Positions 28,803 to 51,958 of a DNA stretch of 64,000 nt are shown piece after piece. Numbering within the stretch: the first letter of the stretch is position 1; each line of letters opens with the position of its first letter. A program made the position numbers and the translations under genes. Source of the DNA: Nocardia grenadensis NBRC 108939 (GTDB taxonomy: Bacteria > Actinomycetota > Actinomycetes > Mycobacteriales > Mycobacteriaceae); NCBI RefSeq assembly GCF_001613445.1, contig NZ_BDCJ01000003.1, positions 62,001 to 126,000 of the forward strand. Direction: 5' to 3'. Below the pieces are notes generated by a model. The model ran no database searches. It had not been told where the DNA came from and saw only the letters and a program-made list of their open reading frames with translations.

Positions 28803-28822
28803 CCGTACAGATGTCCGGACAT
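28803..28822. promoter_or_regulatory. Operator copy A in the SDR/CYP51 divergent region
   Basis: CCGTACAGATGTCCGGACAT contains the core TACAGATGTC (28806-28815) and a perfect palindrome ATGTCCGGACAT (28811-28822). The same arrangement, in the opposite orientation, occurs at 43074-43090. It lies 40 bases upstream of the SDR start. Whether it serves the SDR promoter or a second CYP51 promoter is unclear. Confidence 0.6.
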
Positions 28823-28868
28823 GATGGCATCCCGACAGCGCGCCGGGGGTGGAGAGAGGTCGCACGCC

Positions 28869-28912
28869 TTGCTTGCGCACAACACCCCGTAGTACTGTCC
28901 AGACAGGTGTCT
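28869..28912 (+). promoter_or_regulatory. CYP51 promoter with operator copy B
   Basis: Candidate -35 TTGCTT (28869-28874), 18-base spacer, -10 TACTGT (28893-28898), immediately followed by CCAGACAGGTGTCT (core GACAGGTGTC, 28902-28911). An operator over the start point implies repression. The layout is the same as at 43229-43273 and 51917-51958. CYP51 has its own Shine-Dalgarno site (GGAAGG) further down. Confidence 0.55.
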
Positions 28913-28952
28913 ACCATAGATCCTGGACAGTAATCTGGGGAAGGATTTCCAC

Positions 28953-30308
28953 ATGACTTCGGTGAAACCGCCGCGGGTGTCCGGAGGCGAACACGAACAC
29001 GGCCACCTGGAGGAGTTCCGTACCGACCCGATCGCGCTGATGCGCCGGGTCCGGGCGGAATGCGGTGACGTCGGCCGGTTCGAGCTCGCCGGACGCCACG
29101 TCGTCCTGCTCACCGGCGCCGAAGCGAACGAATTCTTCTTCCGTGCCGCCGACGAGGACCTCGACCAGGCCGCCGCCTACCCCTTCATGAAGCCGATCTT
29201 CGGCGAAGGTGTGGTATTCGACGCCAGCCCGGAACGCCGTAAGGAGATGTTGCACAACTCCGCGCTGCGCGGCGACCAGATGCGCGGACACGCGGCGACC
29301 ATCGAAAAAGAGGTCGACCGGATGCTGGCGGGCTGGGGCGAGGAAGGCGAAATCGATCTGCTCGACTTCTTCGCCGAACTCACCATCTACACCTCCTCGG
29401 CCTGCCTGATCGGGACGAAATTCCGCGAGGAACTCGACAGCCGGTTCGCGCACCTCTACCACAATCTGGAACGCGGCACCGACGCGCTGGCGTATGTGGA
29501 TCCCTACATGCCGATCGAGAGCTTCCGGATCCGCGACGAATCCCGGGCCGCGCTGGTCGAACTCGTCCAGGAGATCATGAACGGGCGGATCGCGAACCCG
29601 CCCGCCGACAAGGAGGACCGCGACCTGCTCGATGTGCTGGTCTCGGTGAAGAAAGAGGATGGCACCCCGCACTTCAGCGCCAGCGAGGTCACCGGCATCT
29701 TCATCTCGATGATGTTCGCCGGCCACCACACCACCTCGGGTACCGCCGCCTGGTCGGTGATCGAAATGCTGCGGCATCCGGAGGTGCTCTCCGGAGTCGT
29801 GAAGGAACTCGACGAGCTCTACGCCGACGGCCAGGAAGTGAGTTTTCACGCGCTGCGCCAGATCCCGCAACTGGAAGCGGTACTCAAGGAAACGCTGCGG
29901 CTGCACCCGCCGCTCATCATCCTGATGCGGGTCGCCCAGGGTGAGTTCGAGGTGTGCGGGAACCGGATCGAGCCCGGCGATCATGTGGCCGCGACCCCGG
30001 CGATCTCCAACCGGCTGCCCGAGGACTTCCCGAACCCGGACAGTTTCGATCCCGGCCGCTATATCGACCCCAACCAGGAAGATCTGGTCAACCGCTGGAC
30101 CTGGATCCCGTTCGGGGCCGGACGCCATCGCTGCGTCGGCGCCGCGTTCGCGCTCATGCAGCTCAAGGCCATCTTCTCGGTACTGCTGCGGGACTGGGAA
30201 TTCGAGAGGGTGCAACCGTCGGACTCCTACCGCAACGACCACTCCAAGATGGTCGTTCAGCTGCAGCAGCCGTGCCGAGTCCGGTACCGCCGTCGGCAGA
30301 AGGCGTGA
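28953..30308 (+). CDS. cyp51: Cytochrome P450 CYP51, sterol 14-alpha-demethylase type
   Basis: A 451-residue P450 very close to the M. tuberculosis CYP51. Shared blocks include PRVSGGEHEHGHLEEFRTDP, YPFMKPIFGEGVVFDASPER, the I-helix MMFAGHHTTSGTA, KETLRLHPPLIILMR (ExxR) and the haem loop PFGAGRHRCVGAAFA. CYP51 enzymes remove the 14-alpha methyl group of sterols. The physiological substrate in bacteria that do not make sterols is unsettled. It is divergent from the SDR operon. The usual neighbouring ferredoxin is not next to it here; a matching one is at 43416. A relic of a ferredoxin reductase follows eight bases downstream. Confidence 0.97.
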   Translation: MTSVKPPRVSGGEHEHGHLEEFRTDPIALMRRVRAECGDVGRFELAGRHVVLLTGAEANEFFFRAADEDLDQAAAYPFMKPIFGEGVVFDASPERRKEMLHNSALRGDQMRGHAATIEKEVDRMLAGWGEEGEIDLLDFFAELTIYTSSACLIGTKFREELDSRFAHLYHNLERGTDALAYVDPYMPIESFRIRDESRAALVELVQEIMNGRIANPPADKEDRDLLDVLVSVKKEDGTPHFSASEVTGIFISMMFAGHHTTSGTAAWSVIEMLRHPEVLSGVVKELDELYADGQEVSFHALRQIPQLEAVLKETLRLHPPLIILMRVAQGEFEVCGNRIEPGDHVAATPAISNRLPEDFPNPDSFDPGRYIDPNQEDLVNRWTWIPFGAGRHRCVGAAFALMQLKAIFSVLLRDWEFERVQPSDSYRNDHSKMVVQLQQPCRVRYRRRQKA

Positions 30309-30315
30309 GGTTCCG

Positions 30316-50459: not shown

Positions 50460-51091
50460 CCGGGACCCGGATCCGGCTGTTGCTTGCCGATGATCACCCG
50501 GTGGTCCGGGCGGGGCTGCGCGCCGTGCTCGAGACCGAACCCGGCGTAACGGTGGTGGCCGAGGCCGCCACCGCCGAGGAGGCGGTCGGCCGCGCGGGCG
50601 CCGGCGACATCGATGTGGTGCTGATGGACCTACAGTTCGGTGCGGGCATGAACGGCACCGAGGCCACCGCCCGGATCACCGCACGGCCCGGAAGTCCGCG
50701 GGTACTCATCGTGACAACCTTCGATTCCGAAGCCCATATCCTGCCGGCGATCGAAGCGGGAGCCACCGGATACGTCCTCAAGGACGCCCGGCCCGAAGAC
50801 CTGGCGGCCGCCGTACGGACCGCCGCCGCCGGACGCACCGCACTGGCCCCCGCTGTCGCCGACCGGCTGCTGAACCGGTTGCGCACGCCGGGAGCCGCAC
50901 TGACCCGTCGTGAAACCGAGGTCCTCACCCTGGTCGCCGCGGGCCTGTCCAACCGAGCGATCGGCGCGGACCTTCACCTCACCGAGGGAACCGTCAAATC
51001 CCATCTGGCACGGATCTACACCAAGCTCGGTGTAGATTCCCGCACGGCCGCCGTCGCGGCGGCCACCGAAGCGGGCCTGATCCGGCGATGA
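50456..51091 (+). CDS. Response regulator, NarL/LuxR type
   Basis: A 211-residue regulator. The receiver domain has the acidic pair in LLADDHPVVRAG and the phospho-acceptor D58 (VLMDLQFG), with Thr in VTTF and Lys in VLKDARPEDL. The LuxR-type helix-turn-helix is LTRRETEVLTLVAAGLSNRA...EGTVKSHLARIYTKL. It is coupled to the kinase gene and should activate or repress the divergent exporter genes. Confidence 0.95.
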   Translation: MTGTRIRLLLADDHPVVRAGLRAVLETEPGVTVVAEAATAEEAVGRAGAGDIDVVLMDLQFGAGMNGTEATARITARPGSPRVLIVTTFDSEAHILPAIEAGATGYVLKDARPEDLAAAVRTAAAGRTALAPAVADRLLNRLRTPGAALTRRETEVLTLVAAGLSNRAIGADLHLTEGTVKSHLARIYTKLGVDSRTAAVAAATEAGLIRR

Positions 51092-51103
51092 AGGCCGCGG
51101 GCG

Positions 51104-51769
51104 TCAGGAGGGTGTGCCCGGGTGGACCCGCTCCAGCACACGGAGCGAATCGGTCACCGATATTTCCCGGAATTCACCGCTGTCGACCGCCCGCCGGTAA
51201 ATACCGTAGGGCGCCTGGCCGCCGTCTGCCGGATCGGGAAAAACATCGTGGATGGCCAGTCCGCCTCCGGGGATCACCCATTTGGCCCAGCCGCGGTAGT
51301 CACGGTCGGCGGCCTCTTCGGTGTGGCCGCCGTCGATGAACAGGAAGTCGATCGGGGTCCGCCAGGTGGCGGCCACCCGCGCGGAGGTGCCGACTATCGC
51401 GATGACGGTATCGGACAGGCCCGCGGTGTCGATGGTGTGCCGGAACCGGGGCAGGGTGTCGAACCGGCCGGTGACCGGGTCGACCAGGGAGGTGTCGTGA
51501 TACTCCCAGCCGGGCTGGTGTTCCTCGGAACCGTGATGGTGGTCGACAGTGAAGACGACCCCGTCCTGCGCGCGGGCGGCGGCGCCGAGCAGGATGGTCG
51601 ATTTCCCGCAGTAGGTGCCGATCTCGGTGATCACCCCGCCGTGGCAGTACTTCACGGCCGCTGCGTGCAGCGCGCGGCCCTCCTCTTCCGGCATGAAACC
51701 GGTGGCCCGGCGGGCGTGGTCGAACAGTTGCTCGTCGGTCAGCTGCGGAGCGGGGGCCGACAGGGCCAT
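51104..51769 (-). CDS. Class I SAM-dependent methyltransferase (Methyltransf_24 type)
   Basis: A 221-residue methyltransferase with motif I ITEIGTYCGKSTILLGAAAR, an acidic residue in VFTVDHHHGSEEH and motif DFLFIDGGHTEEAADRDYRG, as in the cephalosporin/macrocin-O-methyltransferase-like group. The DHHHG and DGGH histidines may bind a metal. AAGGAGG sits ideally upstream of ATG 51769, which I prefer to the longer frame. Its stop is 12 bases from the response-regulator stop, convergent. The substrate is unknown. Confidence 0.88.
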   Translation of the reverse strand: MALSAPAPQLTDEQLFDHARRATGFMPEEEGRALHAAAVKYCHGGVITEIGTYCGKSTILLGAAARAQDGVVFTVDHHHGSEEHQPGWEYHDTSLVDPVTGRFDTLPRFRHTIDTAGLSDTVIAIVGTSARVAATWRTPIDFLFIDGGHTEEAADRDYRGWAKWVIPGGGLAIHDVFPDPADGGQAPYGIYRRAVDSGEFREISVTDSLRVLERVHPGTPS

Positions 51770-51916
51770 CAGGCCTCCTTCGATACAGGTACACAGGGTC
51801 CGCGGAGGCCGGAGCATCGGCGAATATTTCGCATCATCGGAGGTCGGGACTCTCTTCCGGTTCGCGGGGTACGGCGGTGATCGACATTAGTTCACGGGCT
51901 GCAGGCTGCGCGGAAG

Positions 51917-51958
51917 TTGATCCGGCACTACACCGACACTACTATCTAGACACATGTC
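51917..51958 (+). promoter_or_regulatory. TetR promoter with operator copy E over the start codon
   Basis: -35 TTGATC (51917-51922), 17-base spacer, -10 TACTAT (51940-51945), directly followed by CTAGACACATGTCC. The operator core GACACATGTC (51949-51958) includes the ATG (51954). There is no Shine-Dalgarno site, so the transcript is probably leaderless and self-repressed. Confidence 0.65.

What the first reader, a model, noticed from the sequence alone, without database searches (positions are those of the whole stretch)
28803..51958. One operator type links CYP51, a distant ferredoxin/FadD operon and a TetR gene
Five sites share the core (G/T)ACA-NN-TGT(C/A): copy A at 28806 (TACAGATGTC), B at 28902 (GACAGGTGTC), C at 43080 (minus strand TACACCTGTC), D at 43261 and E at 51949 (both GACACATGTC, inside an identical 12-mer AGACACATGTCC). 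In B, C, D and E the site directly follows a plausible -10 hexamer with a -35 at 17-18 bases. Four sites sit at the SDR/CYP51 and CMD/ferredoxin divergent regions and the fifth covers the start of a TetR gene. The genes involved (CYP51, SDR, a CYP51-type ferredoxin, an NTF2-like protein) have counterparts that cluster in M. tuberculosis. This suggests a split operon held together by one repressor, with a FadD19-like ligase and an unknown protein added to the set.
Basis: partly seen in the sequence, partly recalled or inferred. Interest (0 to 1): 0.85.

Follow-up and report, generated by a model that had tools for sequence, protein, structure and literature searches.

The report
Shared operator of a CYP51 regulon
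In a Nocardia genome, the gene for the sterol enzyme CYP51 and several gene groups scattered elsewhere carry copies of one DNA control site that is likely bound by two closely similar repressor proteins, so the other genes under that site offer testable clues to what CYP51 does in bacteria.

Summary
All five sites are where stated and are the only core matches in the window. They belong to a longer site with three half-sites, KACA-NN-TGTC-NN-GACA. A model built from 81 sites of relatives, none from this genome, ranks B, D, C, E and three sites on contig C19 as its best seven of ten hits in the 6.5 Mb genome; A is ninth.

C19 holds the missing half: a 78% identical second TetR, P450s, an aldehyde dehydrogenase, SDRs and a 3-ketosteroid-delta4(5alpha)-dehydrogenase. 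Other genera keep these genes contiguous. Of 152 CYP51-positive genomes sampled in the family, 151 have a TetR of this type. The operator lies upstream of CYP51 in 21 of 21 same-genus genomes, and an in-frame start codon lies inside it for 73 of 73 TetRs in named CYP51 loci.

So "split operon, one operator type" holds; "one repressor" should read two paralogues, and the FadD and unknown protein are members in many genera, though rare or partial in mycobacteria. A counterpart ("motif X", Rv0767c-type TetR, phytosterol-induced) was predicted in a Mycobacterium in 2019: a new variant of a known kind. Binding, ligand and sterol role are inferred.

The parts
28806..28821 (+). operator A, TACAGATGTCCGGACA; between SDR and CYP51
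   Evidence: ranks 9th of 10 in model scan; no promoter found beside it by the scan
28896..28911 (-). operator B, GACACCTGTCTGGACA; centre 46-47 bp upstream of the CYP51 start, third half-site merges with -10 TACTGT
   Evidence: best hit of genome; counterpart in 21 of 21 same-genus genomes, this one included
43074..43089 (-). operator C, TACACCTGTCCAGACA; directly after -10 TATATT of the CMD operon
43255..43270 (-). operator D, GACATGTGTCTGGACG; at -10 TAGCGT of the ferredoxin operon
51943..51958 (-). operator E, GACATGTGTCTAGATA; contains the ATG of TetR1 and overlaps its -10 TACTAT (predicted leaderless, autoregulated)
51954..52532 (+). TetR1, predicted repressor (192 aa)
   Evidence: PF00440; paralogue on C19 78%; Nocardia hits 97%
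28953..30308 (+). CYP51, sterol 14alpha-demethylase family P450
   Evidence: 804 bits to the M. tuberculosis CYP51 structure 1e9x
27867..28763 (-). SDR, first gene of the operon divergent from CYP51
   Evidence: PF00106
26785..27870 (-). F420-type luciferase-like oxidoreductase (TIGR03857 family)
   Evidence: beside the regulon also in L155 and L182
25727..26788 (-). EcKL/APH kinase-like protein
   Evidence: PF02958; beside the regulon also in L155 and L182
42635..43036 (-). CMD-family protein, first gene after operator C
   Evidence: PF02627; member of the block in relatives
41680..42564 (-). F420-type LLM oxidoreductase (TIGR03619)
   Evidence: regulon member by synteny
40427..41629 (-). glycosyltransferase group 1
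   Evidence: PF00534; synteny
39702..40433 (-). methyltransferase
   Evidence: PF08241; synteny
38654..39715 (-). 353-aa protein without Pfam match, last gene of the presumed CMD operon
   Evidence: synteny
43416..43616 (+). CYP51-type ferredoxin (66 aa), first gene after operator D
   Evidence: PF13459/PF13370/PF06902; next to CYP51 in relatives
43772..44323 (+).
44329..45579 (+). 416-aa conserved protein of unknown function (the listed ORF begins upstream at 44284; homologues suggest the start at 44329); a homologue is fused to ferredoxin in Nocardia sp. NBC_00565
45621..47222 (+). FadD-type acyl-CoA ligase (PRK07798 subfamily)
   Evidence: synteny
51104..51769 (-). methyltransferase divergent from TetR1; neighbour of this TetR in several relatives
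   Evidence: PF13578; synteny

Best explanation
The five sites are copies of one operator that is predicted to be bound by the TetR encoded at 51954-52532 and by its 78% identical paralogue on contig C19, placing CYP51, the ferredoxin/FadD operon, the CMD operon and both TetR genes in one likely sterol-responsive regulon. Shown: the motif, its positions, its top ranking in the genome by a model from other genomes, its association with this TetR type and gene set across the family, and its position over the predicted -10 box or just after it at B, C, D and E. Inferred: dimers bind the half-sites GACA/TGTC, which repeat every 6 bp so that two palindromes overlap (GACANNTGTC and TGTCNNGACA), possibly as two cooperating dimers. 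Bound protein would cover the -10 box and the start of transcription and block RNA polymerase. A sterol-derived ligand would release it. At TetR1, TetR2 and most relatives examined the operator contains an in-frame start codon (NTG-TCN, Met/Val-Ser), so the repressor would shut off its own predicted leaderless message. The gene set (CYP51, ferredoxin, P450s, 3-ketosteroid-delta4(5alpha)-dehydrogenase, ALDH, SDRs, F420 enzymes, acyl-CoA ligase, Mce protein) fits work on unusual sterols, separate from the KstR regulon.
For: Whole-genome scan with a model built only from other genomes: the top 7 of 10 hits are B, D, C, E and three C19 sites. C19:198769-208344 holds a TetR paralogue at 78% and regulon genes; TetR2 has the same AGACACATGTCCGAAGG over its start as TetR1. 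The same genes are contiguous with one TetR in loci of many other genera and in named, mostly mycobacterial loci. Of 251 genomes drawn from the family, CYP51 (E<=1e-60) in 152, a TetR of this type (E<=1e-25) in 164, both in 151; exact motif total 251 against control 90 in the 164 TetR-positive genomes and 29 against 40 in the 87 TetR-negative ones. In 42 loci chosen for holding the genes (866 kb), 41 exact motifs, all intergenic by my gene calls, control 0. Third half-site present (>=3 of 4 bases) at 68 of 76 intergenic cores, null 6.4%. Core in 72 of 72 ALDH/TetR gaps of the named loci. In-frame start codon inside the operator in 73 of 73 TetRs of the named CYP51 loci and 27 of 34 of the remaining set, window and C19 included. 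Operator centre 30-47 bp upstream of the best CYP51 in 21 of 21 same-genus genomes, this one included. The stretch ATAYTYFSSK, where TetR proteins read DNA (recalled), is in 48 of 50 TetR sequences; the other two predicted proteins are truncated. Steroid link: C19 flavoprotein 863 bits to 3-ketosteroid-delta4-5alpha-dehydrogenase 4at0; CYP51. In Mycobacterium VKM Ac-1817D a palindrome similar to the predicted Rv0767c motif precedes 14 operons, 12 of them induced >3-fold by phytosterol (PMC6593523, passages).
Against: No binding or expression data for this genome. At up to one mismatch the plain pattern is not enriched genome-wide (28 against 23 control). Site A ranks ninth in the model scan and no promoter was found beside it. 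The three-half-site form is rare in the named, mostly mycobacterial CYP51 loci: 22 hits against 12 control in 1.55 Mb, and within 300 bp of the TetR start in 9 of 71 loci with the TetR (control 2 of 71); there only the core palindrome is kept. 57 of 160 regulon transcription-unit heads had no site and 17 of 192 other heads had one. 7 of 34 TetRs in the other set have no in-frame start in the operator. 71 of the 73 TetRs in the named loci are only 43-55% identical to TetR1/TetR2, and those at the Rv0767c position form a separate clade, so strict orthology with TetR1 is not shown. Relatives are not independent samples. The mBio 2023 table lists Rv0576, not Rv0767c, as putative regulator of Rv0762c-Rv0771 (PMC10470581, passages). 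The steroid role is inferred from protein families.
Confidence: 0.82

Rival explanations
1. The sites belong to one paralogue only: TetR2 on C19, in an operon with the ALDH and the steroid dehydrogenase, is the working repressor, and TetR1 is a diverging copy with another role.
For: TetR1 and TetR2 look like a duplication within the genus; TetR2 lies in the conserved ALDH-SDR-HIBDH-FAD order.
Against: The predicted DNA-reading stretch is the same in both and both genes keep the operator core at their start; TetR1 sits beside the methyltransferase in several relatives.
Confidence: 0.25
2. The sites are bound by an unrelated regulator, or the TetR acts as an activator here.
For: No binding data; an M. 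tuberculosis expression table names Rv0576 as putative regulator of the Rv0762c-Rv0771 block.
Against: Motif excess follows presence of this TetR type across 251 genomes; an operator over the predicted -10 and start at B-E is a repressor position.
Confidence: 0.08
3. Chance: short half-sites recur by accident in promoters.
Against: A model trained on other genomes ranks these sites first; 41 exact motifs against 0 controls in 42 loci; CYP51 upstream site in 21 of 21 same-genus genomes.
Confidence: 0.02

Closest known systems
Rv0767c-type TetR and 'motif X' operons of Mycobacterium sp. VKM Ac-1817D (PMC6593523)
   Same: TetR, palindromic site near its own start codon, operons with P450s, aldehyde dehydrogenase, SDRs and a putative steroid isomerase; prediction from phytosterol-induced genes (passages). 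The core in the named ALDH/TetR gaps, TGGACANNTGTCCA in 70 of 72, is the window's core.
   Different: In this Nocardia the block is split over three places in the window plus C19, there are two TetR paralogues, sites A-D carry a third half-site (E a weaker one), CYP51 has its own operator, and FadD, the 416-aa protein, a glycosyltransferase and methyltransferases are in the set. Their motif logo was not visible to me (figures not held).
KstR and KstR2 regulons (TetR repressors of cholesterol catabolism)
   Same: TetR repressors with a palindromic operator at several dispersed operons for steroid work (recalled); TetR1 has weak profile similarity to KstR (36.5 bits, cut-off 280).
   Different: Operator differs; the KstR pattern TNNAACNNGTTNNA (recalled) has no match with up to one mismatch in the window's operator gaps, and one 1-mismatch match between the two C19 operators.
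QacR-type paired-dimer operators (recalled)
   Same: Overlapping pseudo-palindromes with centres 6 bp apart would suit two cooperating dimers.
   Different: Sequence and function differ; stoichiometry here is untested.

Membership tests
TetR family regulator | TetR_N DNA-binding domain PF00440 | tested here: met
   (50.3 bits, cut-off 24), for TetR2
CYP51 | full-length match to a characterised CYP51 | tested here: met
   804 bits over residues 1-449 to 1e9x (M. tuberculosis Rv0764c)
Rv0767c/motif X regulon | core palindrome GACANNTGTC at the regulator and its target operons | tested here: met
   72 of 72 ALDH/TetR gaps of named loci have the core; window sites A-E share it, A and C in the TACANNTGTC form. 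The published logo itself was not seen
Rv0767c/motif X regulon | conserved gene block P450-SDR-CYP51-ferredoxin next to the TetR, ALDH-SDR-HIBDH-CMD divergent | tested here: met
   members present here but dispersed over the window and C19
Rv0767c/motif X regulon | regulator orthologous to Rv0767c | tested here: inconclusive
   Rv0767c itself not retrieved; 71 of 73 TetRs in the named loci are 43-55% identical, Rv0767c-position ones in a separate clade; tree support not inspected
Rv0767c/motif X regulon | induction by phytosterol | not testable with these tools
   reported for the Mycobacterium strain; no expression data here
KstR regulon | KstR operator at the promoters | tested here: not met
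   6 one-mismatch matches in the window (4.25 expected), none in the operator gaps; motif recalled. On C19 one 1-mismatch match lies between two operators
TetR autorepressor with paired-dimer operator | two dimers on one operator | not testable with these tools
   three half-sites at 6-bp steps are compatible only

The most novel reading that the evidence does not exclude
Actinobacterial CYP51 is the centre of a third sterol regulon, apart from KstR and KstR2, dedicated to 14alpha-methyl or 5alpha-saturated sterols; its TetR switch uses an operator of three interlocked half-sites that is itself the translation start of a leaderless repressor gene, and each part of the cluster that broke away in Nocardia kept its own copy of the switch.
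Probability: 0.35. Interest if true: 0.8.

Novelty: new variant of a known kind. Interest (0 to 1): 0.56.

Why it matters
What CYP51 does in bacteria without a complete sterol pathway is open (PMC6469627, passages: relevance to mycobacterial physiology unclear). A regulon defined by sequence names likely partners: its ferredoxin, a 3-ketosteroid-delta4(5alpha)-dehydrogenase, a ligase, an Mce protein, and an uncharacterised 416-aa protein with thousands of homologues. It also gives a reporter: the ligand that lifts TetR from site B should point to the substrate class. The operator around a start codon, kept from mycobacterial loci to Nocardia, would be a compact autoregulation design.
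Full report
What was checked. The window is contig C3:62001-126000 of a 6.52 Mb, 71-contig genome. Its TetR is 97% identical to proteins of Nocardia fusca and N. testacea, so I take it for a Nocardia. All five sites exist as described. The core has five matches in the window against 1.5 expected, and 4 of 100 shuffles reach five: suggestive, not decisive. 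Reading the flanks showed a longer site, KACA-NN-TGTC-NN-GACA: A, B and C match it exactly, D and E with one mismatch.

Is it more than chance in the genome? The exact long pattern occurs four times in the genome (A, B, C and C19:198769) with no reversed-control match (row G000). At up to one mismatch the numbers are 28 against 23 control, so that level is uninformative. I therefore collected intergenic sites from relatives' loci, kept 81 distinct ones with none from this genome, and built a sequence-only model. Over the whole genome it gives ten hits at E<=10, 150 of 1407 first-look candidates having been scored: B, C19:202718, D, C19:202927, C19:198766, C, E, then C2:238471, A and C11:129283. 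Eight of ten belong to the window set or to C19. The palindromic form YRKACANNTGTCYR has 16 places in the genome (29 strand hits against 7 control hits); eight of them are in the set, including the start of a second TetR.

The other half of the system. C19 carries a TetR 78% identical to the window's, with P450-SDR-P450-GPx on one side of two operators and ALDH-SDR-HIBDH-flavoprotein-TetR2-F420 quinone reductase on the other, and an Mce protein behind a further operator. The flavoprotein matches 3-ketosteroid-delta4-5alpha-dehydrogenase (4at0) with 863 bits. TetR2 starts within TTCAGACACATGTCCGAAGG and TetR1 within CTAGACACATGTCCGAAGG.

Conservation. In loci of many other genera the genes are contiguous: TetR-P450-SDR-CYP51-ferredoxin-183 aa protein-416 aa protein, with FadD in several, divergent from ALDH-SDR-HIBDH-CMD and often the flavoprotein (40 loci). 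Hence FadD and the unknown protein are not additions of Nocardia. In 80 named CYP51 loci, the best of 432 and nearly all mycobacterial, the usual block is CMD-HIBDH-SDR-ALDH | TetR-P450-SDR-CYP51-ferredoxin-183 aa protein. There the SDR next to CYP51 is the C19 type in 76 of 80, the window's SDR type is present elsewhere in 33 of 80, the 416-aa protein in 32 of 80 and FadD in 2 of 80. An M. tuberculosis expression table lists Rv0762c to Rv0771 as one co-responding group with ferredoxin, cyp51, cyp123, Rv0767c, aldA and a CMD protein, and names Rv0576 as putative regulator (PMC10470581, passages). In 251 genomes drawn from the family, a TetR of this type was found in 164, CYP51 in 152, both in 151; the single CYP51-only genome, G272, is 85% complete. 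Exact motif totals are 251 against control 90 in TetR-positive genomes and 29 against 40 in TetR-negative ones. Relatives are not independent, so the counts describe association, not probability. In 42 loci, 103 of 160 regulon unit heads have a site within 300 bp, against 17 of 192 other heads; the reversed control gave 0 and 0. Some of the other heads share a divergent gap with a regulon gene. In 21 of 21 same-genus genomes, this one included, the operator centre lies 30-47 bp upstream of the best CYP51.

Anatomy. At 68 of 76 intergenic GACANNTGTC cores a third half-site matches at least 3 of 4 bases (null 6.4%); at 19 cores inside called genes 10 do. Of 13 intergenic TACA-type sites, 12 have a perfect GACA. 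The relatives' consensus TGGACACGTGTCTGGACAnTAnT reads on the other strand as AnTAnTGTC..., so in sites such as B, D and E the third half-site is merged with the predicted -10 box (TACTGT, TAGCGT, TACTAT). In C and most other TACA-type sites a TATA-like -10 stands directly before the operator. Both arrangements would put bound protein on the -10 box and the start of transcription. At E the ATG of TetR1 lies 8 bases behind the -10 box, so the message is probably leaderless. All 73 TetRs labelled in the named CYP51 loci have an in-frame NTG inside the operator (71 GTG, 2 ATG); in the other set 27 of 34 do. The named loci mostly keep only the core: 72 of 72 ALDH/TetR gaps have GACANNTGTC, 70 of 72 TGGA-N6-TCCA, while the three-half-site form gives 22 hits against 12 control there and lies within 300 bp of the TetR start in 9 of 71 loci, control 2 of 71.

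Regulators. The tree groups TetR1 and TetR2 as a duplication within the genus, and places TetRs at the Rv0767c position of mycobacteria in a separate clade; L202 and L205 have a second TetR in the Nocardia-like clade (support values not inspected). The stretch ATAYTYFSSK is in 48 of 50 TetR sequences of that tree; the two without it are truncated predictions.

Prior work. In Mycobacterium sp. VKM Ac-1817D a palindromic 'motif X' similar to the predicted Rv0767c motif was found before 14 operons, 12 of which rose more than threefold on phytosterol; the TetR carries the motif near its start codon (PMC6593523, passages). Rv0767c binding regions are enriched for GAC and GTC (PMC10312376, passages), and Rv0767c got a motif below the authors' cut-off in an earlier survey (PMC4482099, passages). 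The ferredoxin Fdx (Rv0763c) supports CYP51 activity in vitro with M. tuberculosis proteins (PMC6208970, passages). The link of this TetR type to much of this gene set is therefore known as a prediction. What I did not meet in the papers seen is the Nocardia layout, the second TetR, the third half-site, the conservation of an in-frame start codon within the operator, and the enlarged gene set.

Verdict. The sterol role is the best reading but is inferred from protein families and from the mycobacterial expression study.

Noticed in passing
window 44329-45579: Conserved 416-aa protein with no Pfam or NCBIfam match, 6231 homologues at E<=0.001 among the 8000 candidates scored; a homologue (P0211) is fused to a ferredoxin in Nocardia sp. 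NBC_00565; residues about 6-187 resemble Bet3/XylR_N-type sensor folds weakly.
   Followed up: partly
L298 (G000:C3:262000-277000) at 7377 and 7410: Two strong palindromic cores 33 bp apart between an SDR-like and a TetR-like gene (both by eye); possibly another regulator with a related operator.
   Followed up: partly
L299 (G000:C5:70000-84000) at 6879: TAGACATATGTCTA just upstream of another TetR-like gene and a FAD-dependent-looking gene (both by eye).
   Followed up: no
L065 (G000:C2:231000-245000) at 7475: Good operator match about 320 bp upstream of a 741-aa acyl-CoA dehydrogenase; candidate extra regulon member.
   Followed up: no
L061 (G000:C3:145901-158000) at 2503: Symmetric near-match TACACCTGTCCAGCCATCTGTC about 100 bp upstream of a Polyketide_cyc2 gene.
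   Followed up: no
L202 and L205: Two mycobacterial loci carry a second, Nocardia-like TetR with the exact three-half-site operator, in L205 beside methyltransferase genes of the set, in addition to the TetR of the CYP51 block.
   Followed up: partly
window 23211-25536: CE1758/CE1759-type luciferase-like monooxygenase and FMN reductase pair with a MarR gene between them, just beyond the SDR operon.
   Followed up: no
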